From contig JAPDRO010000006.1 in the NCBI GenBank assembly GCA_030247885.1, positions 124,001 through 188,000 of the forward strand: 64,000 nucleotides of DNA, given 5' to 3'. Below the pieces are notes generated by a model. It saw nothing but the letters and a program-made list of their open reading frames with translations. It ran no database searches and had not been told where the DNA came from. The stretch comes from Taxawa tesnikishii (nom. ined.) (lineage: Eukaryota; Ascomycota; Dothideomycetes; Dothideales). Each line of letters opens with the position of its first letter. The stretch's first letter is position 1. Of this stretch, positions 1 through 64,000 are shown in pieces. Position numbers and translations under genes: made by a program.

Positions 1-2247
1 GAAACGAACGTGCTGACCCTTCCGAACTCACCAGCGAAGTGCTGCTCCCGCTTGTCAAAGTACGAGGAACAGCAGTCCTGTTTGTTGACGGCCTCGACGA
101 ATGCGAACCCGGCGAGAGGCGCCTTCTTGTTGCGCAGATCAAGCGGCTGATAGAATGCGGCACAAAAGTCTTCATCGCAAGCCGTGCGGAGATAAATCTC
201 ATTCAAACCATCCCTGGCACAACCTCGATCGAAATCTCCAAAGAGAACCCAGACGTGCAGCGTGATCTCAAGCACTTCATTAAAGCTACCATCGATGAGA
301 AGACGCAGGAAAGGACCATCACCGAAAATAATGAAGTTCTTGAGCTGATCAGAATCACTCTACTAAGAAAGGCTGGAGCCATGTCAGTCTCTGTTCCACC
401 TCTTCTGACAATGTATGCTTATACCACATGCCTAACAATACGTATAGGTTCCTTTGGGTGAAACTCCTTGTCGATGAGATGTGGGAAAACTGCCATTCCG
501 ACGCTGCCATACTAAAAGAACTCGAAACGCTACCGGAAACTTTGAACGGTACATACCGGAGGTGTGTCAAAAGATCCTTCCAACGTTTCGATGCGAAGAA
601 CGCCGGAACGAAGTCTCGGTTCGATGGCCGAGTTCTGAGATGGGTTGGTGCTGCAATCCAGCCGTTCCGGTTGGAGGAGCTTAGAGAAGCACTAGTTATC
701 AATCCAGAAACCGGCGAGCCTAGGGATCCTACCACACGCCCAAACAGAGACTTTGTCCTGAGGTGTGGAGCCAATCTCGTGGTACTTGATGCAGAGACGG
801 ACCATATCACACTAGCGCATCATTCTGTCAAACAGTACCTTTTCCCAAATCATTCAGAAGAACACTCTCTCGAGATGTCCGACTGGGAAACGATCCTACG
901 CACGACCGAAGAGGCAGAACTGGAGATCGGCGAACTTTGCGTCATGCACCTTTATTGGAGGTCGTTCTCGAGTATCATTCCTTGCGGCAACCAAATTCGG
1001 ACCCCAGTGCCTGCAAACCTGTTACGAGTTTCAACACCTCTCAAGCGGTTGTTTGGATCACGTCTAGCCCCACCGTTGGTGCTTCCTCGACCGAGACCCC
1101 GAGAGACCTATCACGAGACCTTTTCGTCCTATGCAAGCGAAAACTGGGCCTTGCACACAAGAAATATCGAGGGATCATCTCCATACTGGAAAGAATGGAA
1201 AGAGATTGCTCTGGATACCCGCGCTACCTTGCATCCTTGGCTGCCACAAGGTCCAGGTGGATATCCTCAAAACCTTTTGGGCTGGGCCATCGTGCACTCC
1301 CACGTGCCGTTCATACATCTGTTATCTGAGGAGCCACAGATACCAAAACGCATTTGGGATTTGCCTCTGACCCAGAATGGCAGCCTTCTACCCCTATTGC
1401 TTGCCGCCAACACCGGAGACCGGAGAGTACTCGATTTCATGTTGGGCCAGTGTAACACATTCTACGACGAGGACTTCAGTGGCAACAACATCCTGCATTA
1501 CTTAGTCCAGCATCGATTGGTAGAAGTGACAAAGTTTCTCGTACACAATGGATGGAGTTTGGCTATGCAAAGAAACAAGGAAGGGTTCACTCCTCTTGAT
1601 TGTGCCGTGCTGAATAATTGTCTGGAGATAGTATCGGAGCTGGTACCCCAGTTGCACGGCTTCCCGTGGTACCCTTCGAACGCATCGAGGGTACTGGGAA
1701 ATGCGCTTCGTCTCGCCGCAAAGTCCGCGCTGGATGCCTTTGTTGAACCACTGATCGAGGCACACTTGGAATGGGCCGTGGGCCCTGGGGGCGATCTGCT
1801 TCGGTTTGGACCTTGATCGATGCGGATGAGCACGGCCGCAACGCTTTGCACTATGCAGTCATGGGTCGGCACTTTACATTCGCGCAGCGATTGGTGCAGT
1901 GGTCCGTGAAAGTCGCTCGCACTACGGATCTGCGGGCGTGTCTGTCTGACCCTTTGCACGACGTGAGATGGAGGGATTGGAAGAAACTTGCCAAGAAAAT
2001 ACAAGTGGAGCAGTTCGGACCCGACCTCACGGACTTTGCAACATGCGGTCAGGGATTGCTTGCCATTATCGATTCTGCGGATGAGGATGGAAGAAAAGCA
2101 ATGGATTATGCCGACGATGCCACCCCAAGTTCCCTGTATGAGCTGTGTTCTGTGCTTCGCAAAATTTGCGAGGGTGAGCAGGATGGATGGAACATGCTTG
2201 AGGAAGAATACCCACCTGATGGAGAGTCAGCCAGCTCAAATCGCTGA
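1..2247 (+). CDS. NACHT-ankyrin NLR-like protein, 3' part
   Basis: Reading is open from the first bases, so the 5' end, including the Walker A loop, lies outside the window. The visible part starts at a Walker B-like strand (AVLFVDGLDECEPGERR, from about 77), followed by the rest of a NACHT ATPase, a helical region and C-terminal ankyrin-like repeats (NNILHYLVQHRLVEVTKFLV; GRNALHYAVMGRH). An intron at 383-447 (donor GTCAGT, branch CCTAAC, acceptor TATAG) joins GAM to FLWVKLLVDEM, the usual motif after NACHT. Near 1800-1815 the ankyrin reading moves by one base in a stretch with short G and T runs (ggtttgg), which looks like a missing base. Such fungal NLRs are candidates for non-self recognition; the N-terminal effector domain that would define the class is not visible. 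Stop is TGA at 2245-2247. Confidence 0.8.
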
Positions 2248-2441
2248 TGGTAAACACTGCATTTTGCATGTCTAGTGGGCATCATGATGAGAAACTGCAG
2301 ATGACTTGTAGAGAAGTGAACCAGCAAACGGAAAATTTATGGCGTTGCGATCAGCATGAGCCGTGTACAGGATGACTTCCCTAGGTATCAATGCTCTGTC
2401 AGAACCCACCCGGCCTCGCAGACAAAAACAGCAACACCGCC

Positions 2442-5560: not shown

Positions 5561-6822
5561 ATGCCCACCAGGTTGACAAAGACCCGCAAGCAGTCAGTAT
5601 TCACCTCTTCTATATCGCAAATTCCCACTTGTACATCGGAGCCCTAGAGGATTTCCACCATCGCACCTGGAACCAACCGCTCTTCCACTCTGCGCCGATG
5701 ATCCGAAGGACTATACAAACGGTCATTCGGTGGTTGTCGCAGAGCAGTGGTAGTTGCTTTGGAAGAGTTTCAGGCGCGCGGTCAACTCACGGTGCTCTGG
5801 TTCTTCGTCGTCGGCCTCAGAATCAGGGAAACAATCTTACTGACTGATTTCTGTAGCCGCGGCCACGTCTCGGCCGGTCACGGTCGTGTTGGCANNNNNN
5901 NNNNNNNNNNNNNNNNNNNNNNNNNNNNNNNNNNNNNNNNNNNNNNNNNNNNNNNNNNNNNNNNNNNNNNNNNNNNNNNNNNNNNNNNNNNNNNNNNNNN
6001 NNNNNNNNNNNNNNNNNNNNNNNNNNNNNNNNNNNNNNNNNNNNNNNNNNNNNNNNNNNNNNNNNNNNNNNNNNNNNNNNNNNNNNNNNNNNNNNNNNNN
6101 NNNNNNNNNNNNNNNNNNNNNNNNNNNNNNNNNNNNNNNNNNNNNNNNNNNNNNNNNNNNNNNNNNNNNNNNNNNNNNNNNNNNNNNNNNNNNNNNNNNN
6201 NNNNNNNNNNNNNNNNNNNNNNNNNNNNNNNNNNNNNNNNNNNNNNNNNNNNNNNNNNNNNNNNNNNNNNNNNNNNNNNNNNNNNNNNNNNNNNNNNNNN
6301 NNNNNNNNNNNNNNNNNNNNNNNNNNNNNNNNNNNNNNNNNNNNNNNNNNNNNNNNNNNNNNNNNNNNNNNNNNNNNNNNNNNNNNNNNNNNNNCCAACA
6401 TCGACAAGTTCCACCCTGGTTACTTCGGTAAGGTATAGGGTACTTCTCATCAGCAGACCGAAAGTATACTAATACTATCTTACAGGTCGGTATGCGCTAC
6501 TTCCACAAGACCAACCAGCAGTTCTGGAAGCCCTGCGTGAACCTCGACAAGCTTTGGTCTCTGGTTCCCTCGGAGCAGCGTGAGAAGTACCTCGCGGGCG
6601 GTAACGACTCCGCTCCTATCCTCAACGTCCTCGATCTCGGATACGCCAAGGTCCTCGGAAAGGGGCGCCTCCCAGAGAACTGCCCTATCATCGTTCAGGC
6701 TCGCTACTTCAGCGCCGAAGCCGAGTATGCCTCCCTCACCGTCATTGTGTCGTACATGTACTGACAATCTCTGCAGGAAGAAGATCAAGGAAGCTGGTGG
6801 TGTCGTTCAGCTCATCGCATAG
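5561..6822 (+). CDS. RPL28: Cytosolic 60S ribosomal protein L28 (uL15, human L27a), with assembly gap
   Basis: This is a structural protein of the large cytosolic ribosomal subunit. Exon 1 (5561-5592) encodes MPTRLTKTRK plus CA; intron 5593-5856 is 264 nt, long for this window, as is common for first introns of ribosomal protein genes. Exon 2 starts at 5857 with HRGHVSAGHGRVG and runs into an N gap at 5895-6394. Coding resumes at 6395 (TNIDKFHPGYFGK), then intron 6433-6485, exon 6486-6724 (VGMRYFHKTNQQFWKP to SAEAE), intron 6725-6776 and exon 6777-6822 (KKIKEAGGVVQLIA). Compared with family members, only about 20 residues (the K-HRKHPGGRG-MAGG-HHH stretch) are missing in the gap, so the gap either includes an intron or has an arbitrary length. 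Confidence 0.95.
5593..5856 (+). other. First intron of RPL28 (264 nt)
   Basis: Donor GTCAGT at 5593, TACTGAC branch region near 5840, acceptor CTGTAG ending 5856. It is several times longer than the other introns in the window. Ribosomal protein introns can carry regulatory elements or snoRNAs; I see no confident snoRNA boxes. Confidence 0.85.
5895..6394. other. Assembly gap of exactly 500 N
   Basis: A run of N inside RPL28. Both flanks are exonic and in register with the same protein, so the join is probably correct, but the round size suggests a nominal rather than measured length. Confidence 0.95.
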
Positions 6823-9527: not shown

Positions 9528-9859
9528 TGCCTGATTCCTTGCAATAGAACGTATAGGATTTGAGTTTGTGAGCCATAACACGTGCCTGCCGCTAGCTACT
9601 ACTTTAATGTACCCCATTGAGTTGTACAATTAGAGGGAACACAGGAGTTCAAGATCGATCAACGAGGGATAACATGTGAAATGAAGTGGGACTTATGGAT
9701 TCCCGAGCCTGTAAGAAAACCCTCCCGTCTCTTGTGTAGCATGCATCGATCTCTGCATAGTCAGACGCCCACGCGAACTGCCAAATCAGAGCAACGCCAA
9801 CCGCGCCGACGCAAAACCCGCTGGTAGTGTACATTATCGAAATTACCCACTGACGAAGC
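9528..9859. other. Convergent intergenic region MCT-like/ATG9
   Basis: 3' ends of two genes face each other here. No further gene is visible. Confidence 0.5.
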
Positions 9860-13159: not shown

Positions 13160-14078
13160 ATGGCATTCCAACAAGGCCTCCACAACTTCATAGCAGCCAA
13201 CTTCACAACATCATGGCTCTACCCACTCAAGGTAAACAGCATCGTACATCGCAAACCAGAAACCATACATCGCACCCCGTTTTCTATTCCCTGGAAACCC
13301 CTTGAACTCACACAATCTAGGGAACATGGTTCTTCATCCGGCACGCATATCTCTGGCCCCTCATACGCACTCGCCTGCTTCCATTGACGCTACTCTCTGT
13401 TTGCATCACGGTTCTGCTATTTCTGACCATCTACCTTCCACAAGTTGCCTTCCTGCTCCTTTTTCACCGCGCCGGCTCGGCCTGGGTCAACGCCACTTTC
13501 CTAGTCCTGGGCGAGTCGAACGTCATCATTGCCATCCTATTCGAAGCCTTCCTGGTCGACAAGACCCAAGTCGACGTCTTCGATTCTGTCATGCTGGCAA
13601 GAGGCCACGAAGATTTGATCAAGACTCTTCGCCCCGTGAACGAGCAGGAACCCGATCCGGTCAAGGCCCTGGGTGCGCGTGAAAAGGGTGCCGAATTCGC
13701 CCCTTCTCCTTCCGGCAGATCTTCGAATTCGTCATCTTTCTTCCGCTGAACTTCATCCCCTACGCAGGCGTACCCTTGTTCCTTCTCCTGACGGGTTACC
13801 GCGCAGGGCCGCTACTTCAGTGGCGGTATTTCAAGCTGAAAGAAATGAGCAAGCGGGAGAGGAAGGCGTTCATCAAAGCCAAGACACGCAGATGGCAGTA
13901 TCTGTGGTTCGGTACTGTTTATTTGGTGCTGCAGTTGATTCCGATTCTCAGCATGCTGTTTCTACTCACGAGTGCCGCGGGCAGCGCGCTCTGGGCTGCT
14001 GACATGGAGGAAGCGGACAAGCATAACGCTCGTCGGCCAGAGGAGGATGAGCCACCTGCATATACTGACGAACCCTGA
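13160..14078 (+). CDS. LDS/RRT8-type (EI24-like) membrane protein
   Basis: An integral membrane protein of about 276 residues in the fungal Lds1/Lds2/Rrt8 family; yeast members are lipid-droplet proteins linked to the outer spore wall. Exon 1 13160-13231 and exon 2 from 13321 (89-nt intron) give HNFIAANFTTSWLYPLK-GTWFFIRHAYLWP, several hydrophobic segments, and the family stretch NATFLVLGESNVIIAILFEAF followed by DKTQVDVFDSVM. At 13702-13704 the frame moves by one base inside a C/T run (gccccttctcc): upstream reads GAEFAP, downstream FSFRQIFEFVIFLPLNF, which are contiguous in relatives. One missing base gives a whole number of codons. I read this as an assembly deletion; a real null allele is the alternative. 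The role in this species is inferred from the family only. Confidence 0.8.
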
Positions 14079-19545: not shown

Positions 19546-21308
19546 TCACGCCAGCCGTAACCCATTCTCGTCCGGCTTAAACCACTCCGACAACAAACTC
19601 TCCAGCACCTCCTCCGCCTTCGCTTTCGCCGCAGCAGAACTTTCTTTGCTTTCCCCCTCAATGTACAGCTTGATCTTGGGCTCTGTGCCGGAGCCTCTAA
19701 CCGTAAAACACACGCCACCCTCCAGCTCGCACGAGATCATCTGCGCGTTGCTGTCCACCGGTAACGCGGGCCTGCTATCCGGAGTCGCGGAATCGTATCC
19801 CACCGTGAGATCGCGCCATCTCATGATCCTTCGCCTCCCCACGTACTTGCCCACGCCTGTCTTCATACTCTGTCTTATCCCGTCAAACACGGCGTTGGTC
19901 GTGGCAGGGGAGGGCGAGACGAGGTATGTATTCGCGTCCTCGAAATAGCCGTACTGCTCGTAAAGCTGCTGCAACCTGTCCCACGGCGTCAGACCCTGTG
20001 CTTCCCACCTTTGGCACGCCGTGAGGAAACCGAGGCGGCGGTCACGCCGTCCTTGTCGAAGACGACGGGGCTGAACATGTACCCGATCGCTTCCTCGAAG
20101 GCGTAGAGGGCGGCGTAGCCACGCGATTCCAGATCTCGCGCCCTGTTGCCCATCCACTTGAATCCAGTCAATGTTTCCTCAAAGTGGAAGCCGTTGTGTT
20201 TGGCGAGCGCGGACAGCATGCGTGACGATACTGTGGATGCCAACATGGCCAGGGGCTTCTTGTTCGCATTCAGACCTTCGAGGTAGCTTTCCGCAACGTA
20301 CGAGCCAAGCAGGATCCCGATCTGATTCCCGGTTAGTTGCCGCCATTCTCCACCGACCTTTTGCGCGATGGAGAAGCGGTCCGCGTCGGGGTCGTTTGCT
20401 AGAACTAAGCTGATATCGTGCGTATCTGCGGTACTGGTGGCTAGTTTAAGAGCGCCCTTTTCTTCGGGGTTTGGAAAGCGGACTGTGGGGAAGGAGGGAT
20501 CGGGATGCGCCTGTTCCTCTACGACGTGATAGGAGCTGGGAAGGACGCCGAGTTGCTGAACCGCGGTGGTGAAGAAGGGGAGGCCAACACCGTGCATGGG
20601 TGTGTAGACGAATGGTGTTGGGTCAGGACTGATTTTCAGCGTCGAGGGGCTTGCTATGCTTGAGATGGCGGCGAAGTAGGCATCTTTGACTTGGTCAAGG
20701 GCGTGAACCACCAGGGGTGAGCCTCTCGCGACGGCATCGGAATCCCAGCTCTGAGGTCCCAAATTTCTCTCAATGGCTTCGGCGATCCCCACATCATGAG
20801 GTGGAATAATCTGACACCCGTTGGACCAGTAGACTTTATACCCATTGTCATTCGCCGGGTTATGCGATGCCGTGACCATGACTCCCGCGGCGGCGTTTAA
20901 CTTGCCTACAGTGAAAGGCACAAGCGGTGTATGCACCATACCGAGCCAGAGGATGCGGATGCCCCTATGGATAAAGGCGGCAGCAGCGAGTTTGGCGAAC
21001 TTGTCAGAGTTGTAACGCGCATCTCTACCAATCACGACTCCTCGATCCCTTGCGCTGGGTTCTTGCTCTAAAAGGTACGCGGCCAGACCCTGAGACGCCT
21101 GGATCACGGTCAACGCGTTCATGCGGGAGAATCCTGCGCCCATGGAGGCACGAAGCCCGGCGGTCCCAAAGGTGATACGTTTCCGTAGGCGGAGTTCTAG
21201 TTCCGCGGTGTCTCTAGATGCAAGCAGTGATTCCATTTCCCTGCTGGTCTCAGGGTCTTGATCGAGTTCGAGCCATTGCTGGGCCAACTTCTCGATAGGT
21301 GGTTCCAT
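19546..21308 (-). CDS. Phosphoglucomutase/phosphopentomutase (PGM2/PRM15 type)
   Basis: A cytosolic alpha-D-phosphohexomutase that moves phosphate between C1 and C6 of glucose (or C1/C5 of ribose). It is a single exon of about 587 residues, near the family norm. Visible sites: substrate entry GTAGLRASMG (about 48-57), catalytic phosphoserine loop TASHNP (146-151, Ser148), metal loop DPDADR, sugar-binding loop EEAIGYMFSP and phosphate-binding RGSGTEPKIK near the C-terminus. TASHNPANDNGYKVYW favours the PGM2/Prm15 subgroup over classical Pgm1. Near 20027-20029 (a TTT run on the coding strand) the frame moves by one base: DKDGVTAASV continues as FLTACQRWEAQGLTPWDRLQ only if one base is restored, giving exactly 588 codons. 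I treat this as an assembly deletion. Confidence 0.88.
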
Positions 21309-23723: not shown

Positions 23724-23863
23724 CTATACGTATACGCCGTTTGTCCCTCGGGACGAAGATGCACATGCGCTGCAAACCGACAATCGTCGGGTGCGTTATA
23801 ATCACATGTTGCCTTTGATCCGCTACCTGCTACGTACCTCTACCGGACGAGCGAGCTGTCTAC

Positions 23864-30214: not shown

Positions 30215-32295
30215 TTACCAAATCTCCCCGAGGCCGTCGGATGGCCGATTCGGGAGCAACTTGTCGAGTTGTTGAAGTAGGACTCCGAAGTTGGAGGTTG
30301 GATGGTCGGCTTCGATGCCACTGTCCCTATCGGTTCCCTCCCCGTCGAAGCTGGGACCGCTGAATTCGTCGTGGTGCTGCCAGATGCCGAGGGCGCCGGG
30401 GCTGTCGGTGTTGGGTTTGTTGGCATGGAGCGTGTCGTCCTCCGTCGCAGCGACAGAAGCGTCGTCACGGTCGTCCTCGGTAAGTATACGACCACCGAGC
30501 CTGACGTCTGCCGAGCGCACCTGGTGGTCGAGCGCTTTCCTACCGTCTCGGATGAGGTCTTCGGTCCAGCATAGACAGCGTTTCAACGATTGATTCATCT
30601 TCTGCGTGTCGAGGAGGAGCTCCCGATGCTTTTCCAAATCGATTTGTAGACGCTTTTGATCCCTGGCACGATACCTCGCATCACTGTCTGCTTGTGCCGT
30701 TGGTGATAGAGGCGCAGCCGAAGAAGTCACAGAGGCTGAATCTTCCTCAGACAGATCGCCTACTTCTTCTTCGAACGGGCTCGATGTCCGGCCAATGTCA
30801 TCAAAGTCCGGCAAATCACCCTCCTCATCCAGCGATGACAGTCGGCGGACGGGCCGATCTGCTTCTGGAACCGAGAACTGCCCTGCCCGACTGAGCCTGC
30901 GATATCGCTTGAGTTCCGCCTTCTGCTTCCTCATTTCTCTTTCCAGGGATTTGTTGATGGCGAGAAGTGACGAGTTTGAGATTTCAAGATCCAGGACTTT
31001 GCGCTCCCTACGCGCATCCGCCGCAAAATCACTCTGGGTCTTGAGAGGGCTTTGGCTGGGCTCGGCTACAGAAGGACGAGCACTAGCCAATTTTGTGTCA
31101 ATATCTCGCAATATCGGACGCTGTCGCTGCGGTTGAAATTGTGCCTTGTCCTCAGCAGTACGGTCATCTACTGTCGTCTCGCCACTAGCAGGTACTTCCC
31201 CGCAGTTTGTGAGCGCCTCCGTGATCGGTGTGATGCTCCCGATTCGATTGAAGACACACTTGAACTCTTCACGTGACCCTTCTTGAACCCCGACAAACCC
31301 AAGCTCGGCTTTTGTTGGCCGTTCTGATTATCTGGGAACGGTGATTGACCAGGAAGTACGGAGCCAGGTGATGTGCCATGTTGTCGATCTAGCCTGACAC
31401 CGAAGATCTGAGAGACCCCTTCCGGTAAGAAAGGTGTATGCTTTCCTTGGGTGGAGACGCTGGCCTCGCCGACACCGAAGAGGCGCTCGAGGCAGGCGGT
31501 GGGAAGAAAGGCGAAGCTGCAGATGTCGAACTCAAGGGGGCGAGAGTATGGACGGGCTGGGAATAGGTTCTGATGAGACGTTCGCATGCAAGAACAGGCC
31601 AGGTGACCGCTTTTCTGATACTGCTGAAAGCACCGGAGAGGGTGCTTTTGATGACGGCGCTCGGGTTTCCTCCTCTCGCCCGTTTGCGTAAACGAAAGTA
31701 GGGTTCTTCTTAGGCTCAGTCTTTTTCAATGCGGGCTCATGTCGTCTTGCATCGCTGGCGTGGAAGAATTGTGGGCTGTTCTCTCCTGACCTCCTCCCAG
31801 CCACGGTTTGGGTGCCATCTGCCCGTCCAGCCAGCCGTAGTGCAGGTAACCTCACGGTCTCTTTGCCGTTGACCAAGCTCTTCGACCTCCCGCTCGCAGC
31901 TTGCAACCGTGAATCTAATGTGCTCTCAGAGCGTGCAGGTACCCCTTGAAGCTCGCCCGTTGGCGACAGTGTTTTTGCTCTCCTAAGCTTGGCGTGTCAT
32001 CGCCGCCCAGTGCTGGTGACAAGGCTCCAACTCTTGACTTCCGCGAAGACGACCGCGGGGTAATGTTGGAACTCAAAACGGCCTTCACAGGGGTATCGCT
32101 ATCCTCGACTGGTGGAGCTTTTGATACTGTGCTAGCTGACTTGTTCGCCGGTCGTCCTGCGGCAGTGCTCGAGGATACGGTGGGGTGTGCTGCCAGACGG
32201 GGTGTCAAGGGCGATTTGGTATTTCTTGTGGAGCCGAGGGTGGGTTTCAAGGACCGGCCTTGATTGTTGACATTGTGGCGGTCACCAGGGGCCAT
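30215..32295 (-). CDS. Conserved fungal coiled-coil protein, unknown function
   Basis: Predicted length about 694 residues once four single-base gaps are allowed for. The N-terminal half is disordered and Ser/Pro-rich (MAPGDRHNVNNQGRSLKP; AKTLSPTGELQGVPARSE; ASPPKESIHLSYRKG). It is followed by a compact motif EEFKCVFNRIGSITPITEAL and a coiled coil (LLAINKSLEREMRKQKAELK; KRLQIDLEKHRELLLDTQKM). The C-terminus is acidic and ends PSDGLGEIW. The frame moves by one base in the same direction at short runs near 31277, 31416, 31536 and 31989; each join restores a sensible sequence and the total becomes 695 codons. I do not recognise a named homologue; the layout suggests a cytoskeletal or cell-cycle scaffold, which is only a guess. 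It diverges from the Pol kappa gene. Confidence 0.7.
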
Positions 32296-32812
32296 GGTAC
32301 GGTGCCAGCGTAGTACAGATCAAGGTGTGTTTCTCCGCGAGGGGCTGAACAATGCAGAGAGCATATGTGCCAGTGCTGGCCAAAGTGCCTGTTAGGTGTT
32401 AGATGTAGCTGCTGTCCTGGCAATTTCCGGTGATGCTCGGCATGGTGATTTCCGGACAGAAGAAGCGTAGGGCGGTGAAGGGAGCGTTGTAGTTTCTTTT
32501 GCTTGTTCAGATATGAATGTCTCGAGTTTACAGCGAGTGTGGATCCAGGGGGATCAAGTGGGGTCGTAGACGGTTGGATGGTTCCTTTTGTTGTGCTGAT
32601 GTACTCGACTTGGTTATGACACTTACAAACATTCACTCACGCGCGAGACGAACAGCAGATGCGGGTCGGGTCGGCTTGGCGCGCTAGATAATCGATTAAA
32701 CTCGCAGGGATCACGAACGCGTCTTTTACGCCTTCTACGCCTCTTCCATGCTAAACCCGCGTCGACCCCTGCAGCTATCGTATCGAAATATTCCCAACGT
32801 TGATGGAGCAGC
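32296..32812. other. Divergent intergenic region, coiled-coil/Pol kappa
   Basis: Shared promoter region of about 0.5 kb. No gene seen. Confidence 0.5.
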
Positions 32813-34809
32813 ATGGACAACTCTCCAGAGGAGGCGGGTCCCTCCGCGGCCCAGGACAGCACCAACGATGACGCGCCAGAGTCTAGCCAGCATCATACCC
32901 TCAAATATCACCTTCTGGGACCCTCCCTCACCAAGTCCGGCCAGGACGATGTTGATCAGAAGAAGGTCGCCGAGGTCATCTACAACACCTCCAAGGGCAG
33001 CAAGTTTTTCAACAACGAGGAGGTCAGGGATAAAAACCTGACGATCAAAATCAACCGCATCCTGGCCAAGAAGAGGCAACTGGACAAAGTTGAGCTGAAG
33101 CATGACTTGCGGAAAGCAGACGATTACATTGCGGAGCTGGAACTCACGAGGGACTTGAGTCAGGTCGTGGTGCACATCGATTGCGACGCGTTCTATGCGG
33201 CAGTAGAAGAGTTGGACAGGCCGGAGCTCAAGGATGTCCCGTTCGCGGTGGGTAAGGGCGTGCTCACAACATGCAATTACCATGCACGGAAATTTGGCTG
33301 CAGGAGTGGCATGGCGGGCTTTGTGGCAGACAAACTCTGTCCCAACCTCATTCACATACCCATGAACTTCGACAAGTACAACGCCAAGGCGAAAGAAGTG
33401 CGTGCCGTGCTGTCACGGTACGATGCGCGGTTCGAGAGTGCCAGCATCGACGAAGCATACTTGAACATGACGGCCTATTGCCAGGAGCATCAGCTTAGCC
33501 CGGAAGAAGCAGTGCAAAAGATGCGTGACGAGGTGTTCCAAGAGGCCAAGATTACCATTTCCGCCGGAATCGCCGCGAACACTAAGTTGGCTAAGATCTG
33601 CTCGAACAAGAACAAACCCAACGGACAGTTCAGGCTACCTTCCGATCGTGCGAGCATCGTAGCTTTCATGAGGGATTTGCCCACCCGAAAGGTCAATGGC
33701 ATTGGGCGCGTGTTCGAGCGGGAACTCGACGCTATCGGCGTCAAGACATGCGGAGATATCTATCCTCACCGTGCCTATCTATCAAGACTCTTTGGCGAGA
33801 AAGCGTTCCAATTCCTCATGGGCGTTTACCTTGGTCTAGGCCGCACGACAGTCCGTCCTTCGGAGGAATACGAACGCAAGAGCGTTGGCACGGAGACGAC
33901 GTTTCGTGACCTGTCAGATCCCAAAGAACTCCGACAGAAGCTGCAATGGCTGGCTGAAGAGCTCCAGAAGGACTGCGAGCGAACGCAGTTCAAAGGCAGG
34001 ACTCTGGTGCTAAAAGTGAAGATGCATACGTATGAAGGTCTCACAAGACAGGTCGCGCCCCCAAAGCTGTGCATCTGGCAGAAGACTTGTACAAGTATTC
34101 GCTGCCGATGCTGGCCAAGCTGGAGAAGGAGATGCCAAACATGAAGCTCCGGCTTATGGGGCTGCGCATCACGCAGCTTGTCAGCATGAAGAAGGGGGAT
34201 GTGGATTTCTTTGGACGGAAGAAGGGTACTGCGTCGGCACCAGTCATTCGCAAAGCATCAGCAACAGACGAAGGTGAATGGGAGCAGTGGCCCGACGAAG
34301 AATTTGAAGACGCAGCACGACAGGAGCGGCAGGATGAAATGGAAGAGCTTGAGCGCCTGAGTCAAGATCACGCTGTTCAGGAAAGCAAAGATGACAACGC
34401 CGCTCAGAACAGCAAGGACGAGGAGAGTGACAAAGAGCGTCAAGCCTTCGAGGCTCGGAAACACGACAATGGCTTCGCGTGGCGCTTGCTGCTGGAAGAA
34501 GAACGGGCAAAAGAGCGTGCCGAAGCAGAGCAAGCAGCCGAGGCGGAGAAGGAGGAACGCTGGAGTTGTCCGATCTGTGGACTGCCGCAGCCAGCTGAGG
34601 ACAAAGCCTTCAACACACATATCGATGGGTGCCTGTCACGACAAACCATCAAGGAGATCGTCAAGACCTCATCACCGCCAAGACAATTGGCATCACCGAC
34701 CGCAGGGCCCGTCAAGAAGAAGCGAGGAAGGCCAAAGAGTGGGACAGTGACATCACAAGAGGCCAAGAGGCCGAAACACGCATTCTTTACACGTGAGTGG
34801 GAAGAGTAA
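32813..34809 (+). CDS. POLK: DNA polymerase kappa (DinB-type translesion polymerase)
   Basis: A Y-family polymerase of about 665 residues that copies past damaged bases. The N-clasp (KVAEVIYNTSKGSKFFNNEE) is followed by the catalytic palm with VVHIDCDAFYAAVE (about 118-131) and SASIDEAYLNM (about 209-219), carrying the metal-binding Asp/Asp-Glu residues. Next come helix-hairpin-helix (PTRKVNGIGRVFERELDAIG), little finger (YLGLGRTTVRPSEEYERKSVG), a long acidic linker, and a C-terminal UBZ4-like zinc finger (CPICGLPQ, then HIDGC, about 586-607) for ubiquitinated PCNA. A basic KKKRGRPKSG stretch near the end could be a nuclear signal. At about 34062-34066 the frame moves by one base between APPK and HLAEDLYKYSLPMLAKLEKE; one restored base gives 666 codons. 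I treat this as an assembly deletion. Confidence 0.92.
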
Positions 34810-35070
34810 CTTGAAAGCTATTCATCTCATTCCGAAGAATTTTCGTTTCGTTTCCTCGTCGTCCCGTCATCGTCCAAGACAATTCTTCCGACTTCTCTCT
34901 CGTATCAGCCGCAATGCGGTACAATAAAGCCATTTGGTCTTATGGTTCTCATTCACATCTAGTGTCATCGTCGTTCGTGTGCATACATGCGCCCTTTTAG
35001 CATACGTCCACACGTCTCCAAACCAAGCCTGAGCTTCCCACGAGAATCCGACCTCAAATCCACCATCAAC

Positions 35071-36553
35071 TTACTTTCCCTTTGGAAAATCTTCCGGGTA
35101 CTCGCATGTAAACATATTGGACCTGCAACGTGCACACTGTGGTCTGTCGAAATCGCATTGAAGTATGCTCCTCTGACAATTAAGGCACTTTGTCTTACCC
35201 TCATCCTCCGGGCCCGCTGGTCCGCCAATCGGTTTGTGGCGCTCGGCTTCGTTGAAAGGTTGAAGGTCCCGCAATGCTATTGGCGCCTTGGACTTGCGGC
35301 GCGGAGGCTCTATGAAGGTCCGCGGCGGAGCTTCGTCGTACGATACCGTGGCCGAAGGTGGTGCTGCCGCGTTCGACTTGGAGCTGTTGCGTGGTGGTGG
35401 CGGTGGTCTACTGGGCTTCATGAAAATACTCGAACGTCGCTTCATCCTAAACGGGTTCTGTTGGGTCGCCGCTCCGGAGAGGCCGCTAGGCGGCGGGGGA
35501 TCCTCACCTACGCGCTCTCGCGGCGTGTCCTCAGGGCGCAGCGTCCTCAACGCGGCGTGGGCGTTGGCGGTGAGAGGCACCTGGAGACGGCCCGCCCTCG
35601 TTGCCGCTGCGGAAGCGGACTCTCGTCTAGGATTAGGTGCGTCGAGGATCGCCCGGAACTTCTTATGGCGACCTGCGGTCGTGACCGTCGTGGGAGCGGA
35701 TTTTCGTCTGGATGCGACCTTTTCCATGTCTTCGCGCTCTTCCTCTGCATGGAGCAAACTGGACAGACTATCGTCAGAGGCAGAGTCACCAGGATGCGGA
35801 GCGGCCTCCCCTGAGGCCGATTCCGGGCCTTTCTTTTCCGAGGGTTTCGTTCCCGCTCAGCTGCAAAGTCGGCGCGCAGCATAGCGTTGAACTGTTCTTC
35901 GGTCATCTCTTCTTCGGAGTTTTCGCTCCCTTCCGCTCCCGTCACTGGGGGCAGGAAGATTGTGGTGTTTCAGACGGTCCAGGAGGTGCGCGAGCTAGCG
36001 ACGATGAGGACGCATGGATTGGCTTCTCCTTGGCTTCCTGGTCCGAGTTCAGGCCTGCCGGTGCACGCCGCTTGCGACCTGATGCGTCATCCGCGATGTA
36101 GCTTCTGTCGAAGTCTTCTTCCAGGCGTTGAACAGACCATTCGTATCCCGGAGGACGGTGAGTGAACTCTCGCAGGGAAGCGCTTCTCAGCGGAGATGAC
36201 GGACGTCGTGTCTTCCTCGGGGGTTCCGGAGTGGGCGATGGAGAGGATCCCCGGGCCTGCTCGCGCGTAGATCTCCTCCCAGGCTTGCGTTCCTTGGTAT
36301 TGCGTTCTTTGCGACAGTCCAAGCACTCCTTGAAGAACGGCGTCTTCGGCGACGGGCCTTTCTTCTCGAACTGCTCGATGGGTCCGGTCTTTCCGCACTT
36401 GGTACATGGGTCTGGTAGGGGAATTTCGGTTTCGTCTGCTGGTATGTGTGAGGGCCGTGGAGGGCTGTTTTTGTCATCGTCACCACCACCGTCAGGGGCA
36501 GTTGCTACGGTTGAGTTTGGCTTGTTGATCGGAGTGAAAGACGAAGGTTCCAT
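35071..36553 (-). CDS. Putative regulator with N-terminal CxxC zinc motif and C-terminal Zn2Cys6 cluster
   Basis: Predicted 494 residues after allowing for two single-base gaps, at 35845-35847 (TTT) and 35947-35951 (GGGGG, plus strand); the total is then 495 codons. The N-terminal part has CTKCGKTGPIEQF, then FKECLDCRKERN, a four-cysteine pair that could bind zinc. The middle is disordered, charged and Pro-rich. The last 40 residues contain CLNCQRSILQC followed by QCARC and FTC: C-x2-C-x6-C-x6-C-x2-C-x6-C at about 457-484, the spacing of a fungal Zn(II)2Cys6 binuclear cluster. In most fungal transcription factors this domain is N-terminal, so a cluster at the extreme C-terminus is unusual. 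No middle-homology region is seen. DNA binding is inferred. Confidence 0.7.
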
Positions 36554-45150: not shown

Positions 45151-45667
45151 ATGGACGACACAGAACTCGACCCAGAACTCGCAAAGGCCATGGGCTTCTC
45201 GGGCTTCGGGACGCAGCCGAACAAGAAGAGGAAGTTCACGCACAACGACGCCGTCGTCGAAACCGCGCCTAAGAAGGAGGGCAGTGGAGCGAACAACACG
45301 GCGCTAGGTGCGAGAGGGAAGAAGGGGTGGGGAGGCCAGAAGTTGTAGCGGACGAGACACGGAACTCGGCGCAGCAGCGGGCAGGAGGAGGAGGAGGGTT
45401 GGCAGGGTTTCTTGCGAGAGGACAGCAGGGGCCGAACGAAGGCCGGGCGCGTGCGCACGAGACAACAGGTGGAGTAGTGCCAACTGGGACGGATGGAGGA
45501 GCAGCTGCCACGGAACGCGTGCGGCAGGTGCGAGGGGAGGAGAGCGGATTGTGCGGGACCAAAGCATGCAGCAGAGCGCGATGACGGACGCCCCGGCCTA
45601 CTTTCGAGACAGCTTTCTGGAGGATCCTTGGAAGGAGTTGAGGGAACGGAGAGGACAATCGGGATGA
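45151..45667 (+). CDS. Small conserved fungal protein, unknown function
   Basis: About 172 residues if two single-base gaps are allowed for (near 45324-45336 and 45534-45537, both in G runs), making exactly 173 codons. The N-terminus DDTELDPELAKAMGFSGFG followed by NKKRKF is conserved in many Pezizomycotina proteins of similar size. The middle is Gly/Gln/Arg-rich and disordered. The C-terminus reads APAYFRDSFLEDPWKELRE, matching the conserved FxEDPW ending of that family. The basic NKKRKF could be a nuclear signal. Without the two frame corrections only the first 65 residues would be called. I do not know a function. Confidence 0.62.
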
Positions 45668-49195: not shown

Positions 49196-49222
49196 ATTCG
49201 AAGTCGTTGTACTTAGCGGCAT

Positions 49223-49831
49223 TGCGTTTGGCAGAGTCGACGGTTTCTGCTCTGTGGACTGCGCTGTGGTGTCGAGATGCCGCCTGTCCTTAGAAACACG
49301 CTGTTTCAGACGAGCATCGTATCACTTGAGACAGTTCATCTCACTTGCAGTAAGTTCCTTTGAACTTTCCCTGTCCCGCCAACACCCATCAATAAAAATC
49401 TCAGAACGCAACGGCGCTTATAGAGCTTTGGGAGGTGGGGGAAGTGCAAAAGTAACGCAATATCTTCAGCCAACATCACACATCTATCCACAGGGCATAT
49501 CGAACCGAACAGGGGGGGGGGGGGGGGGGTCGTTACACGGCTAGATGGTATTGTCTAATTCGGTAAGAACAAAAAGACCCGCTAAAAGTACGTGACACAA
49601 AAAAAGGAACAATCAGGCCTGTAAGCACAAGGGAAAAAAATTGAAGAAGAAAGACAACAATGCAAACCCCGTCTATCACGCATGTAAGCCACCGAGAACA
49701 TGTACACAAGGGGGTTGAAGCAAGCCGGGAGTTGTGCACTACAAATCTCCCAGCCCAGCCCCCTCCCCGCCTTTTTTCGCTCCTCTTCCTGTTCGACGCA
49801 CTCCGTGAATTCAAGCGTGGCGGTTCCGCAC
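49223..49831. other. Intergenic region with poly-G tract
   Basis: Region downstream of the Flc/TRP-like gene. An uninterrupted run of 18 G lies at about 49512-49529. No gene seen. Confidence 0.5.
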
Positions 49832-54989: not shown

Positions 54990-56057
54990 TTACGCACCCT
55001 CGTCGTCGTCACCAACGCGGATCTGGCCCTCAGAGCTGAGGCCGTGGGACCAGAAGCCACCGAGCTCAACGTTGGTCTCTGGGATCCTCATGTGGGTGAT
55101 GAGCAACCAGGCACCGAAGACTGGCTTAGCAAGAATGTCGAGGACGGCGTAGGCGATGATCTCCTGGTCAACGTTGAGCCTGCGAGAGCCATCGGCGATA
55201 CCCCAGACACTATATCCTATCAATTTCCGCTGCATTCGGAATCAATCTGACAAGACTCACATTGGGTAGATGGTCCAGATGACCAGTGTGAAGAGACCGA
55301 TGGCGCCGAAGAAGTTGCCGACCTTGCCACCCTTGGACATGGCCTGAGCGCGACCGTGGAGGACAAGGTGCCAGATGACAACCAGGTAGGCAACGCAGGC
55401 CATGGCGTACCAGCCCCACTTCTGAGGGTGCCCTCGCTGCCGAAAGCGGCGAAGAGACCAGTCATGATCATGATGATGTCGGCAATGATGGCCATCAGGA
55501 TGTGGCCACCGTTCATGCCAGCAAGCAGGCACAGGTCGAGAAGGAGCAGGGGAGTGGTAACGCTCCAGTCAACGTAGCGAGCCCAGAAGACCTGGCGGTA
55601 GAGGTCGTGGGTGGTGTCTGGGACGTGCTTGTGGGATTCACGGACAGTGATGTGGTTGTAGGCAGTGCCGTGGCCAGTGGCCATGGCGAAGTAGGACAGA
55701 GAGGCGAAGATGGTGATCAAAGTGGTGATGATGTGGTACAGACGCCTCGACTGTGAAAGGGTCAGGTCAGCCTTCGGTGCCACGGATAGAGGAAATGCTG
55801 CTGCCTGGTCACTCACGATTGGGACGGTCCATGACATGCCGGCGAAAACGGCAGAGGAGATGAGCATCAGGACGAAGACGACCCAGAGAGTCCTGGTGCC
55901 AGTCTCGGTCACGCTCTGGTATTCCGGCAAGCTTGGGACCTGCAAGTGATCAGTCATGCACCCTGTGTACTCGACAACGAGGCACGCATACGACAGTCGG
56001 AATAGGAGCAACAGAGCTCGTCTTGGCCGCAAAGGCCTGAACTGGGTCGACAATCAT
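54990..56057 (-). CDS. Microbial-type (type I) rhodopsin, proton-pump-like
   Basis: A retinal-binding seven-helix protein of 299 residues. Exons are 56057-55992, 55939-55817, 55750-55261 and 55209-54990; introns are 52, 66 and 51 nt. The start MIVDPVQAFAAKTSSVAPIP joins VPSLPEYQSVTETG. Helix C reads WARYVDWSVTTPLLLLDL, with aspartates at about 124 and 135 at the positions of bacteriorhodopsin Asp85 (acceptor) and Asp96 (donor). Helix G reads YAVLDILAKPVFGAW with the retinal lysine at about 255 and an aspartate four residues before it. Both carboxylates point to an active proton pump, as in CarO-like fungal rhodopsins. Near 55426-55428 (GGG run, plus strand) one base is missing between GSEG and QKWGWYAMACVAYLV; restoring it gives 300 codons. 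Confidence 0.92.
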
Positions 56058-58221
56058 GATGGCGGTGATGGAGACGGGACAGTCGAGACGGTGTCTGGTG
56101 TCGAGGTTGTCCGGGAGGTTGTTGGAGGAAGGAAGGAGGGAGAGAAGGAGGAAGTCAAGGTACTTCTGTCAAGCTCCCTCCTGCGGGGTCCAACAGGCCA
56201 ACAAGGTGCCATCTCAAGTCTGGTGATCGGGGAGCGGCGCGTCGAGCTAAGACGTCACTCCAATCATCGCGCATCATCCGTGGCTCGTGCTCGAGCTTTC
56301 TCCGCACGTGAAGCGCCTCTCCCAAACGCGCCTCGCATGGCGTCGAGCAGGCCAGATCGGATGAGCTGCGATTTCTCCGAGGTATTCATGTCCCAGAGAA
56401 GGGTCCCTCTATGTACCTGTAGGACATCTTTCGAGGGTTGCAGGAGTACCTTTTCTTTGGATGCCTTGTCGGGCATCTGGTCGTCTACGAGGGAGGTTGT
56501 TTCGGAGCAAACGGAACAGAACCGAAACCGGATACATCATCTGCATCATAAAGCGCCAAGGATCCCGATTGCTGGATCGGCTAGGAAGAAATCAAGGCAT
56601 TGCACATGCGCCATCTCCACAGCCTGAAGGTTGGTGTGCGTGCTTATCGTCCAGATCGACTCTTGTTGTTTAGGCGCCCGTTTTCTGCTGTGCTCTTCGG
56701 AGCGAATGCCACAAGGAATGCGAGCCACTTGCGTAGAATCGCAGGCTACCGATAAAACCAGCGCCTCCTGCTTGCTGAGATCCCCCACGCATCTGAGACA
56801 CCACCAGCCAGTCAGCTGCGGTGCCACGGGCCCGTGCAGCAATTGAGACCTCCTGAAACTGCTTGGCGGAATCGATGCAGTTAGAGTACCGCCATAGCCG
56901 GTCAACACTATATACATGCTGCACGTCTCGGCGGCACCACGATTGCTTTGTGGCCTGTTCAAATATGGTATGAAAGAGAGGACCTCTAACTGCTAACCTC
57001 GAAGGCTTTACAACCCGGCAGGCTTTCAATACAGGCTCCGCTCCGGACGGACCAATGAAAGTCACAGACATCCATCACCGTAGTCAGTAGCCGAGAGTTA
57101 GAGCGTCTTGCTCGAGATAGGTGATTGTTTTGTGAAACTCTCTTCCTCTACATGGACTTGACGAGATTGCTATTCCGGGGACCACCTACCTGAGACAATC
57201 TTGTCAACCGGATAAGACAGATGTGCGCTGGCGAGCAGCCAATCACGCCTTCATCATCGTTCTGGAGACCAACGCCGACACGTCGAAGAAATCAACAACC
57301 TCAGCGCCGACGCATGCTCAGTGCAACGATGCGCAATCTTTCTTTCGTACGCGCCCTGAAAATCTTAATGCCTCAGCCCTCTATCTCCCGCTGAGGGCGC
57401 TATGCTCTATCTCGCCAGAAGCAACCGCACTCAAAAGGATGGAACCTGATTTGGCCCGGGCTGCTGCCACCCAGTTAGACGCGATTCTCGGTTTTTGACG
57501 GCACACGTTCTCCTGGCAACCCGTTGTATAGGCCAGAAAGCAGAGAGTCGTCCGCGGGACTAAGCAAGAATGAGGAACTTCAGCAGCCTCAAGTCCTCGC
57601 TCTGATGGAGGGCAGCAAGAGCGTGGATGGAAACGCAGGTCCTGAATTCTCCTTGGAGATCTTGCAGGATGGTTGCCTAGTGTCAATGCAGCATAACAGT
57701 CCTATGTATTCTCGCATGCTCGAAACTACTATTATTGCACTGTTCGTAACGTCTGCAGAAAACACACCTAGCACTACATAGTTGTACGCTTAGCGAATAG
57801 CCCTGCCATGAACCATACAGTCACCCAACATCTCATAAGCCTTCGCCTGATGCACACAGCCTACTCGAGCTATGTCTCTCCTAAACAACGAGGAAGCTGT
57901 TCGTCTTCTTGGCGCGCATCGTCGCCGCGGCTCAACACCGCTGCTCAACACCGCTACAACTCACAACGGTCTTCCTTTCCTTTTTCCTGCGCGAAGGCCC
58001 GCTGCTATCGTTGCACATCGGGACAATCCGATAACAAGGCACGCGACATGTATACAGAATCGTGAAAATAAGCCAGCCAAATTGGCGCGCTTGTCCACCA
58101 CCGCTCATTGGGCCCTGCAGGAGATTGCGCACGCGACATTGCTGCGAGGTACCAGGGAAGTACAAAGAGTTCAGTCCGAGCCTCTTGTTCCACTCTGCGT
58201 TGTTCAAAGGATAAACACAAG
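56058..58221. other. Divergent intergenic region rhodopsin/nuclease, 2.2 kb
   Basis: The longest gene-poor stretch between assigned genes. Short frames exist (for example minus 56264-56476 and plus 57223-57498), but none has a recognisable domain or good splice sites. Confidence 0.45.
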
Positions 58222-60228: not shown

Positions 60229-61438
60229 ATGCTCAGAGCGTCGAGTCGCCGCCTATCACAGTTCCGACCCATCATGCAGCCCTTCGAATACAACCAGCAC
60301 CCAGGCCGCGTCGTCTTCGGCAGCGGCACCCTTCAGAAGCTCCCTGATGAGATCAAGCGCCAGAACCTGTCCGCTCCTCTCCTGCTGTCCACACCACAGC
60401 AGGTCGAACAAGCAGATCAACTGAAGAGCATCCTCTCCGGCAATGTCGCGGGCATCTTCACCGAGGCGACCATGCACACGCCAACCCACATCACGGACAA
60501 GGCTCTGGCCTACGCGAAGGAGACGAAGGCGGACAGCGTAGTGTCCATCGGCGGCGGCAGCACCATCGGACTGGGCAAGGCGATCAGCATCCGGACCGGC
60601 CTTCCTCATATCTGTATCCCGACGACGTACGCCGGCAGCGAGATGACACCGATCCTGGGCGAGACGGCAGAGGGCAAGAAGACGACCCGGAGCGATCCCA
60701 AGATCCTGCCGGGCACCGTCATCTATGACGTCGATCTCACCATGACTCTTCCCACGGCATTGAGCGCCACGAGCGGCGTCAACGCCATCGCACACTCGGG
60801 TAAGCCCATTCCCTCCACCCATCCCCCAATCACTCCCCACGCGCCACAAACGCCATCCTCAACCAGACCGCTGACCCCCCGTGTGCTCCAGTCGAGGCGC
60901 TGTACGCGCGCAACACCAACCCGATCATCAACCTGCTCGCACTCGAGGGCATCAAATCGCTGGCCGCTTCCCTCCCCGACATCGTGTCCGACTCCAGCTC
61001 GCAATCCGCGCGCTCCTCGGCCCTCTACGGCGCCTGGCTCTGCGGCATCTGCCTGGGCAACGTCGGCATGGCCCTGCACCACAAGCTGTGCCACACGCTG
61101 GGCGGCTCGTTCAACCTCCCGCACGCCGAAACCCACACCATCGTCCTGCCGCACGCCATCGCGTACAACGCGCCCAAGATCCCAGACGTCATGGCCAAGC
61201 TGGCCGAGGTGCTGCCGGGCAGCGACGGCGATGCCATCAAGGGGCTGAACGTGCTGTTGCAGCGACTGAAGGTCAAGAGGGGTTGAAGGAGTTTGGCATG
61301 AAGGAGGAGGATATTGACAAGGCGGTCGAGATTGCGCTGGGCAACCCGTACTGGAACCCGAGGGAGATTGAGAGGGAGCCGTTGAGGGAGACGATCAGGC
61401 GTTGCTGGGCCGGAGAGGAGGCCAGGGCGGATCTGTAA
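60229..61438 (+). CDS. Maleylacetate reductase (iron-type alcohol dehydrogenase family)
   Basis: An NAD(P)H-dependent enzyme that reduces maleylacetate to 3-oxoadipate in aromatic (resorcinol/hydroxyquinol) breakdown. Exons 60229-60799 and 60892-61438 flank a 92-nt intron, joining AIAHS to VEALYARNTNP. Landmarks: HPGRVVFGSGTLQKLP, the nucleotide loop SVVSIGGGSTIGLGKAI, CIPTTYAGSEMTPILGETAE, and GMALHHKLCHTLGGSFNLPH followed by AETHTIVLPH with the metal-site histidines. Two possible starts: 60229 (MLRASSRRLSQFRP, which could be a mitochondrial signal) or 60274 (MQPFEYNQHPGRV, the usual family start). At 61279-61282 (GGGG) one base is missing between LQRLKVKRG and LKEFGMKEEDIDKAVEIAL; with it the gene has 373 codons from the first start. 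Confidence 0.88.
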
Positions 61439-61813
61439 GTGATTTGCAGGTGTTGAGGAGACTGTGAAGTGGTAGGTCGGGCTATCACAGGATCGAGCAT
61501 TGTGGATAATAGATGGTGGACGGTCATTGAAAAACGTGATTTGCGGGACTTCTCGTTTCATTCACGTTTTGGGATATATTGTGCCTAGAAAGAAAGCAAA
61601 ACGGTCGTATAGTCGTTACTGCGCTCCACGCCAAAAAAAAGGCCCGATGGAAAGGAACACCCGCCTCTCGTCAAAAGAGACCAAAAGAAAAATGCCCACA
61701 GTCTGTACAAACTCCTTCCTCAACACCATTGCAAAGCGCATAATCGCTTTGTTTCCTGCGGGGGTATCTTTCAATGCGTTCGATCCATCTCATCACTCTT
61801 CTTTCGGAGATGT
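61439..61813. other. Convergent intergenic region
   Basis: Facing 3' ends of the reductase and the MARVEL gene. No gene seen. Confidence 0.5.
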
Positions 61814-62562
61814 CTAGACGTAGTATGAGCGCCTGTTGGTGGAGTGGTGCGACCGACGTCCAGAGCTGGGGCGGTAGTTGTTGTTGTAATCGTAGCTGCC
61901 TCTGCTGCTGCGGCGGTGGCCGTGGCGCGTGGTGTGGTATTCGCGCTTGACGACGACGCGGTCGTCTTTCCGGCGGTGGTGGCGGTGGACCAGGAGTGCG
62001 AGTAACTGGGTTCACTGCGTTAGCAATTCCTATCCTTTCTGCATTCGGAAACATAGCGAGCAGTTAGGAGAAAGAGGGGGATTGGATCACTCACGAAGGT
62101 GAAGAAGAAGAGTATGCACTCGATTATGCCGAGCGCAAAGGCCGCCTTGAGCATTGCGCAGTTCTTGTTGATGTTGGCCGCCCAGGGCGAATCGCTCTGC
62201 CGGCCGTAGTACCCGAACGGTCCGAGGGAGATGTAGAAGCTGCCCGCGGTGAAGTTTGTGCAGCTCCAGTTGGTGACGCCGCGCAGCAGGACCACGGCTG
62301 CGATGAAGGTGGCCATGAACGCCAGGTCGACGAGCGCGACGAAGAGCGCCGAGTGTCGGGCCCGCAGGTACGCGACCACGGTTGCGAGGGTCCAGGCCAG
62401 AGCGAGCACGGAGGTGATGAACTCGACCAGGATGTAGGTCGGTGTTAGTTGGTTCACGGACACGAAGCCGTGGACGAAGTAGGCGAGCAAGCCCACGATG
62501 GGGATGAGGGTCAGGATTTCGAGGATCCGGAAGGAGAGGAAGAGGAGACCGGAGAGGGCCAT
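61814..62562 (-). CDS. MARVEL-domain membrane protein
   Basis: A 219-residue protein with four membrane helices, exons 62562-62095 and 62005-61814 (89-nt intron). Helices: ILEILTLIPIVGLLAYFVHG, YILVEFITSVLALAWTLATV, ALFVALVDLAFMATFIAAVV and AFALGIIECILFFFTF, the last continuing as LLALLVHRHHRRKDDRVVVK after the intron. The extracellular loop with NWSCTNFTAG and NCAMLKAAF has the conserved cysteines of fungal MARVEL/Nce102-like proteins. The C-tail is basic and His/Arg/Tyr-rich (HTTRHGHRRSSRGSYDYNNN) and ends SYYV. Relatives act in plasma-membrane microdomains; a specific role here is not known. Confidence 0.85.
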
Positions 62563-63389
62563 CGTGATGGTGTTGTTGAGGGTGGTCGTAGCAGTGATTG
62601 AAGTGTGAGTGGTGGGTGGGGTGGTTTGTGATGGTCAGTGAATGGAGGACAAGATCAACTGCGGTAGAGCTGAAGCCTCAGCTTGCAGCAGGATGTGGTG
62701 AGGAGCGCGGGAGTGAGTGCGCGGGCAGTGGACAAGACGTGGAGGGGTCCGCCACCGTCTGTACAGTCGATGTACGTTCGTGTGAGGTATTGCTTCTCTA
62801 CAACAGCAACAACAGCAATGGGCAGGTGCGCACAAGGGAAGTCTTGTAGTAGGGGCGCTTGACCCTCCGCACAGCAGGAATCAGTCGAATGACGTAGTAC
62901 GATATACAGATATCTTGATCTCAACCGCGCTGCAACGGTGGTGTAAGCAGGCTCGTCTTATATGCATGAGAAGTACGCGAGCCAACTATGATATCTTGCA
63001 GGACCAAGGAAACAATCGAATGGCGGGGAGAGGGCTGGTGATGCTCGCTGCCCAATCAGATCGGGCCACGGACGCTAAGGATCTATCCGAGCGTGCCCGC
63101 CCTCGGTTCGACGGCTAACGGCCCAACTGCCGCGTGGACTCCGTGACAGCGAACGGAGTCAACGGCGAACGGAGTCAACGGCGAACCCGTCCATCTTGTT
63201 CGCACTTCGTTCTCTATACACTTCTCCTAGGCCTCGATGGCGTCCAATAGTATATATTGTTCTCGCTGTACTTCCGCATGGTGCGGCGCGTCTCACGCGC
63301 GCTCATTAGTGTTATGCTGCGGCGCCCATGACTCGCCATAGATGAACCCAGCCTCCTCACAAAGATCTTCTCGGATCTTGCGCTATTGC
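62563..63389. other. Upstream region of MARVEL gene and gene-free sequence
   Basis: Promoter side of the MARVEL gene, then sequence without recognisable genes. A 16-bp unit (GCGAACGGAGTCAACG) is repeated twice plus a partial copy at 63149-63187. Confidence 0.5.
63149..63187. repeat. 16-bp direct tandem repeat
   Basis: GCGAACGGAGTCAACG occurs twice head-to-tail without mismatch, followed by GCGAACC. Confidence 0.9.
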
Positions 63390-64000
63390 AATGCTGCTGC
63401 TCTACGAAATCCCTACATGGAAGATCTGGGTGCCAGGGACACGGGCGTCAATATGGTGGGTGTCCCTAGCTATCGTGCCGTCTCACCGAGAGGAAGAAGT
63501 TGTCTTAAGACATTGGCGCCCACCCATCCCTTGGGCGACCTGCACTGCAATAAGACACTGCCCCATTCCAGAAAGATCTACTGGCAACACATATGGTCCT
63601 TCGCTGTTGGCGGCCTAGAGCCATTACGGTCTGTACGCTGAACTATTCCCGGAAGTTTTCTGCCGGAATGCTACGAACCCGGGTGGTGCTTTTGCCTTGC
63701 AACAACACCCTTTGCGCATCCAGTAAGAGCTCTTGAGGGCACATTTGGTCTTTCTCCGTAGTCGTCCATACCTATGACGGCCCTCACAGTGGACTGCCCC
63801 CACACGTTTCTTCCGAAATCCTGCATGTTTAGTCGATGCTCCTCCTTATGACAATACCGTTGATCGTTCAGAACGTACGATTTGAAGGCACGCTTGATCC
63901 CTCTCCGTTGGCGGTCCATGTCGGTAGTGGCCCTTGTACTGGACTGGTTCCGAATATTCTCTCCCAGCACGCTGCATGCTCAGGTGGTGCTTCGCCTTAT
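63390..64000. repeat. Diverged tandem repeat, period about 151-152 bp, open at the window edge
   Basis: Matching blocks recur at constant spacing. ACATATGGTCC at 63589, ACATTTGGTCT at 63741 and ACGCTTGATCC at 63892; GCAATAAGACAC at 63547 and GCAACAACACCC at 63699; GGTGGTGCT at 63682, GTCGATGCT at 63834 and GGTGGTGCT at 63983; AAGATCT at 63421 and 63573. At least three units plus a weaker fourth are visible, each differing at perhaps a third of positions. On the minus strand two units translate to related peptides (QSSTRATTDMD and QSTVRAVIGMD), so it may be a decayed repeat-protein exon or a non-coding satellite. Confidence 0.72.

What the first reader, a model, noticed from the sequence alone, without database searches (positions are those of the whole stretch)
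1..64000. About 14 one-directional single-base frame breaks at homopolymers across nine genes
Apparent one-base losses occur near 1800-1815, 13702, 20027, 31277, 31416, 31536, 31989, 34062, 35845, 35947, 45330, 45535, 55426 and 61279. All shift the frame in the sense of one missing base, on both strands, in otherwise well-conserved genes, almost always in a run of 2-5 identical bases. Adding one base per site makes each gene with both ends visible a whole number of codons. This is the pattern of homopolymer under-calling. Any automated annotation would wrongly split or truncate these genes or call pseudogenes.
Basis: partly seen in the sequence, partly recalled or inferred. Interest (0 to 1): 0.7.

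Follow-up and report, generated by a model that had tools for sequence, protein, structure and literature searches.

The report
Missing bases in a draft fungal assembly
Several genes in this stretch of a fungal genome look broken because the draft sequence has lost single bases, often beside short runs of one letter; the same fault sits in a gene the fungus should not be able to live without, so it is almost surely a sequencing or assembly error and not biology.

Summary
The window is part of a 29.37 Mb, 34-contig genome of what appears to be a filamentous fungus. In each, homology resumes in the -1 frame with no room for an intron. Three more are supported (13702, 35845, 35947), 2 partly (1800-1815, 20027), 6 not shown (31277, 31416, 31536, 31989, 45330, 45535). 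A frame tracker called 21 losses and 5 gains in the window plus 13 other 10-kb stretches; on finished E. coli DNA, 0 of its 16 steps fell inside a gene. Elsewhere in the genome, 6 of 6 breaks too tight for an intron go the same way. One lies in an RNA polymerase III RPC2-type gene, where 2 bases stand for one codon. Coding runs of 6 or more number 3 against about 60 in codon shuffles, partly natural. Homopolymer under-calling is well supported; "about 14 in nine genes" and "all one-directional" are too strong. Known kind of artefact; no reads were available.

The parts
428..2247 (+). Ankyrin-repeat gene; frame changes near 1800-1815 (partly supported)
   Evidence: Ankyrin E 5.9e-10 upstream, E 0.057 downstream in the -1 frame; tracker ends the gene at 1816
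13160..14078 (+). EI24-type gene; frame break near 13702 (supported)
   Evidence: EI24 E 5.2e-8 from 13716 on; one loss preferred to a 134-bp intron by 3.9
19546..21308 (-). Phosphoglucomutase/phosphomannomutase-type gene; frame change near 20027 (partly supported, intron possible)
   Evidence: PGM domains I-III in one frame, domain IV (E 8e-6) in the -1 frame; 77-bp intron fits as well
30215..32636 (-). Chain of overlapping open frames of unknown family; four claimed breaks 31277-31989 not shown
   Evidence: Open frames; no Pfam match; tracker takes one intron and no loss
32813..34809 (+). DNA polymerase kappa-type gene; frame break near 34062-34076 (shown)
   Evidence: PDB matches on both sides, 29 bases for about 10 codons; tracker loss at 34076
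34965..36553 (-). Gene or genes with a Zn-cluster match; two frame changes near 35947 and 35845 (supported)
   Evidence: Two losses preferred to a 187-bp intron by 5.5; Zn-cluster frame
45151..45667 (+). Region with an MPLKIP motif; claimed breaks at 45330 and 45535 not shown
   Evidence: MPLKIP E 3.1e-7 in one frame, downstream of both sites; tracker calls only 45151-45348
54990..56267 (-). Bacteriorhodopsin-like gene; frame break near 55426 (shown)
   Evidence: Profile 29-124 and 125-220 in two frames with 2 bases between; tracker loss at 55422
60229..61438 (+). Iron-containing alcohol dehydrogenase gene; frame break near 61279 (shown)
   Evidence: 32 bases for 11 codons of 3jzd; ADH_Fe_C in two frames; tracker loss at 61284

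Best explanation
A sequencing and consensus artefact. The assembly was made from reads, most likely nanopore-type long reads, whose base caller shortens runs of one base; too little polishing left single bases missing at or near runs all over the genome, detected here about once per 5 kb of coding DNA. Shown: single-base frame losses in conserved genes, a bias towards losses, their spread over several contigs, a loss in an RNA polymerase III gene. Inferred: that the chromosome itself carries the full runs, and the sequencing platform.
For: Three window genes broken with no room for an intron. 21 losses to 5 gains in 104,028 coding positions of the window and L042-L054 (sign test P 0.0025), with a tracker that recovers planted losses and gains about equally (85 and 94 of 100) and makes 0 of 16 steps inside a gene in finished E. 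coli DNA. 6 of 6 tight breaks among 61 neighbouring family matches are in the -1 frame, 3 of them exactly one base short. In the C7 gene, yeast RPC2 residue 1008 (human 993) and 1010 (995) are separated by 2 bases. Coding runs of 6 or more: 2 A/T and 1 G/C, against 22.8 and 36.8 in codon shuffles. Runs of 4 or more near 8 of 22 losses, 2.1 expected. Base callers other than Scrappie capped runs at 5 bp in one nanopore study (PMC5889714, passages).
Against: No reads were available. 5 of 26 tracker steps are gains, and runs lie near gains too (2 of 5). One called gene in L043 gives 4 of the 21 losses and 2 of the 5 gains. 14 of 22 losses have no run of 4 or more within 8 bases. Outside genes A/T runs of 6 are fewer than expected (10 against 21) but runs of 7 are not (5 against 5.4), and a few runs of 8 to 18 exist, so the cut at 5 is not absolute. 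E. coli genes also lack long G/C runs (1 against 6.3). No fungal control genome was held. Passages of PMC7500977 report that polishing of nanopore data gave more gains than losses.
Confidence: 0.95

Rival explanations
1. Short introns, or borders between two genes, and not frame breaks: an intron whose length is not a multiple of three changes the frame.
For: Introns are common here; 54 of 61 neighbouring family matches have intron-size gaps. An intron fits 20027 as well as a loss. Nothing excludes it at 31277-31989 or 45330-45535.
Against: No room for one at 34062, 55426, 61279 or in the RPC2-type gene; at 13702 it would remove residues that match EI24. As the general explanation it fails; for the 6 unshown sites it stays open.
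Confidence: 0.03
2. Real frameshift mutations: decayed genes or pseudogenes in the living fungus.
For: Some genes could be dispensable, such as the ankyrin gene; the run-rich sites are mutation-prone (recalled).
Against: An RNA polymerase III RPC2-type gene, a CCT chaperonin gene and an HSP70-type gene are broken in the same way; RPC2 is essential in yeast (recalled). The sequence on both sides of the shown breaks stays conserved.
Confidence: 0.02
3. Recoding: the runs are truly short and ribosomes or RNA polymerase slip to restore the frame.
For: All the shown breaks need the same -1 correction, and runs are enriched near losses.
Against: A slippery XXXYYYZ heptamer lies within 15 bases of only 2 of 21 losses, about 1 expected. 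The longest runs near losses vary in base and in length from 2 to 5. No such system is known to me in fungal nuclear genes (recalled; not searched for in papers).
Confidence: 0.01

Closest known systems
Homopolymer truncation in early nanopore human assembly (PMC5889714; passages seen)
   Same: Runs capped near 5 bases; more deletions than expected from truncated runs.
   Different: Here the platform is not known, a few longer runs exist, and the cut is clear in coding DNA but weaker outside genes.
Nanopore-only Drechmeria coniospora fungal assemblies (PMC7500977; passages seen)
   Same: Filamentous fungus; indels in runs shift frames in conserved single-copy genes.
   Different: Those passages report more gains than losses after polishing; here losses outnumber gains.
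Run-length errors of 454, Ion Torrent or thinly covered PacBio data (recalled, no call)
   Same: Single-base indels, often at runs.
   Different: Not separable here without reads; a fall between 5 and 6 fits k-mer base calling better (inference).

Membership tests
Homopolymer under-calling artefact | Single-base losses outnumber gains | tested here: met
   21 to 5 (sign test P 0.0025); 6 of 6 tight breaks
Homopolymer under-calling artefact | Breaks lie at or beside runs of one base | tested here: met
   8 of 22 losses within 8 bases of a run of 4 or more, 2.1 expected, P 0.0007; but 14 of 22 are not, and 2 of 5 gains are
Homopolymer under-calling artefact | Long runs are scarce across the assembly | tested here: inconclusive
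   Coding runs of 6 or more: 3 against about 60 shuffled; natural avoidance of G/C runs also in E. coli; outside genes A/T runs of 7 are not scarce
Homopolymer under-calling artefact | Also hits genes that must work | tested here: met
   RPC2-type gene, 2 bases for one codon; essentiality recalled
Homopolymer under-calling artefact | Reads or an independent assembly show the longer run | not testable with these tools
   No reads and no sister genome held
Spliceosomal introns | Room for an intron of about 45 bases or more at the break | tested here: not met
   Not met at 34062, 55426, 61279; not excluded at 20027 and the 6 unshown sites
Programmed -1 frameshifting | Slippery XXXYYYZ heptamer at the shift | tested here: not met
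   2 of 21 losses within 15 bases, background fraction 0.048

The most novel reading that the evidence does not exclude
The runs are truly short in the chromosome, and the fungus restores the frame genome-wide, in essential genes too, by -1 ribosomal slippage or transcriptional slippage at short runs.
Probability: 0.01. Interest if true: 0.95.

Novelty: not a real feature. Interest (0 to 1): 0.1.

Why it matters
It matters to anyone who uses this assembly: at about one detected loss per 5 kb of coding DNA, many gene models will be split, cut short or given false small introns, and claims of pseudogenes or gene loss drawn from it would be unsafe. It tells nothing new about the organism.

Tried and rejected
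tRNA and Rfam searches of the window found nothing. A tracker with a stiff step penalty (12) took most breaks as introns and found 2 losses in the window; with penalty 7 it finds 6 of the 14 sites, so it is conservative. E. coli at first seemed to give false steps (12 losses, 4 gains); all 16 lie within 45 bases of an annotated gene end, where neighbouring genes meet or overlap. It also gave 18 false introns there, 3 of them inside genes, so single tracker introns are weak evidence. A CCT gene on C3 and a proteasome gene on C34 looked broken in the match tables but have intron-size gaps. PDB searches with the phosphoglucomutase tail did not settle 20027. One paper search aimed at the species returned 0 papers; the organism was not identified, and that it is a fungus rests on its gene families and introns, not on a taxonomic match.

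How samples were chosen. Pairs were picked by eye from the tables (neighbouring matches on one strand, gap about 120 bases or less); more distant pairs were left out. The 44 sequences overlap in part (34 losses and 9 gains in all; one loss is counted twice, in L011 and L029, and one gain lies at a sequence end); the count of 21 to 5 uses only the window and L042-L054. The run test used 22 of the 27 distinct out-of-window losses. The E. coli run control used 27 of the annotated genes of its stretch.

Full report
What the window is. It lies at C31:124001-188000 of a 29,367,862-base genome in 34 contigs. Its genes look like those of a filamentous fungus: Rad54, ATG9, a TRP channel, a sugar transporter, a Y-family polymerase, a bacteriorhodopsin-like protein, with short GT-AG introns predicted. 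The window holds one N run of exactly 500 (5895-6394), a round size that suggests scaffolding filler (inference).

Checking the 14 sites. I searched the three frames of each of the nine genes apart, with stops as X, and pieces of three genes against solved structures. Three sites are shown. In the rhodopsin gene, profile positions 124 and 125 fall in two frames with 2 bases between them. In the iron alcohol dehydrogenase gene, 32 bases stand for 11 codons of chain 3jzd. In polymerase kappa, 29 bases stand for about 10 codons of the human chain (the second piece is weak alone). At 13702 the intron that the tracker would take instead removes residues that match EI24. At 35845 and 35947 two losses beat a long intron, though two genes remain possible. 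At 1800-1815 and 20027 the evidence is partial. For the other six sites (31277, 31416, 31536, 31989, 45330, 45535) nothing here shows a break; introns or a gene border are possible.

Frame statistics. I wrote a tracker that follows the reading frame by sequence composition, with GT-AG introns and single-base steps. On the window and 13 other 10-kb stretches it called 21 losses and 5 gains in 104,028 coding positions. It recovers 85 of 100 planted losses and 94 of 100 planted gains, so the bias is not of its making. On 50 kb of finished E. coli DNA all 16 of its steps lie at gene ends and none inside a gene. One called gene in L043 gives 4 of the losses and 2 of the gains, so its structure may be wrong.

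Genome-wide test with conserved families. From searches with PF00118, PF00133, PF00562, PF00227, PF00069, PF04998 and PF00012 I took 61 neighbouring match pairs. 54 have intron-size gaps, with frame changes both ways (22 and 18; 14 unchanged), and one is between sizes. 6 leave no room for an intron; all 6 are in the -1 frame and 3 are exactly one base short: one of the Rpb2-family genes, a CCT chaperonin gene and an HSP70-type gene. The Rpb2-family gene on C7, one of three such loci, matches RPC2 of RNA polymerase III best: one piece ends at yeast residue 1008 (human 993), the next begins at 1010 (995), and 2 bases stand between. RPC2 is essential in yeast (recalled), so the base is most likely missing from the sequence and not from the cell.

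Run lengths. In coding pieces of the sample, runs of 6 or more number 2 (A/T) and 1 (G/C), against 22.8 and 36.8 in codon shuffles. E. coli gives 25 against 30.8 and 1 against 6.3, so natural avoidance explains part of the G/C deficit but not the A/T one; no fungal control was held. Outside genes the deficit is weaker: 10 A/T and 4 G/C runs of 6 against 21.4 and 14.9, but 5 A/T runs of 7 against 5.4. Runs of 4 or more lie within 8 bases of 8 of 22 out-of-window losses, 2.1 expected, and of 2 of 5 gains. Base callers in one nanopore study, Scrappie apart, capped runs at 5 bases (PMC5889714, passages), and nanopore-only assemblies of another fungus show frame errors in runs in conserved genes, though there with more gains than losses after polishing (PMC7500977, passages). 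The platform here is inferred.

Verdict. Recoding was considered: slippery heptamers lie near 2 of 21 losses, about 1 expected. This is an artefact of a known kind, useful as a warning about the assembly.

Noticed in passing
window 5895-6394: An N run of exactly 500 that seems to lie inside a ribosomal protein gene (uL15/RPL28-like by eye, no search made).
   Followed up: no
window 49512-49529; L042:7078-7088; L045:2906-2916: Isolated long runs (G18, T11, G11) in sequence otherwise short of runs over 5 bases; possible polishing or filler artefacts.
   Followed up: no
genome contig C2: Eleven protein kinase matches on one contig; three share profile range 3-260 with one TGA and one TAG inside, and two have identical scores: perhaps a repeated, decayed element.
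   Followed up: no
genome contig C34:341219-342854: One RNA polymerase largest-subunit locus appears in three different frames with open frames of only 273-291 residues; losses and introns were not told apart.
   Followed up: no
L043:4212-8726: One called gene with 4 losses and 2 gains: a decayed gene, several genes joined by the tracker, or a badly sequenced stretch.
   Followed up: no
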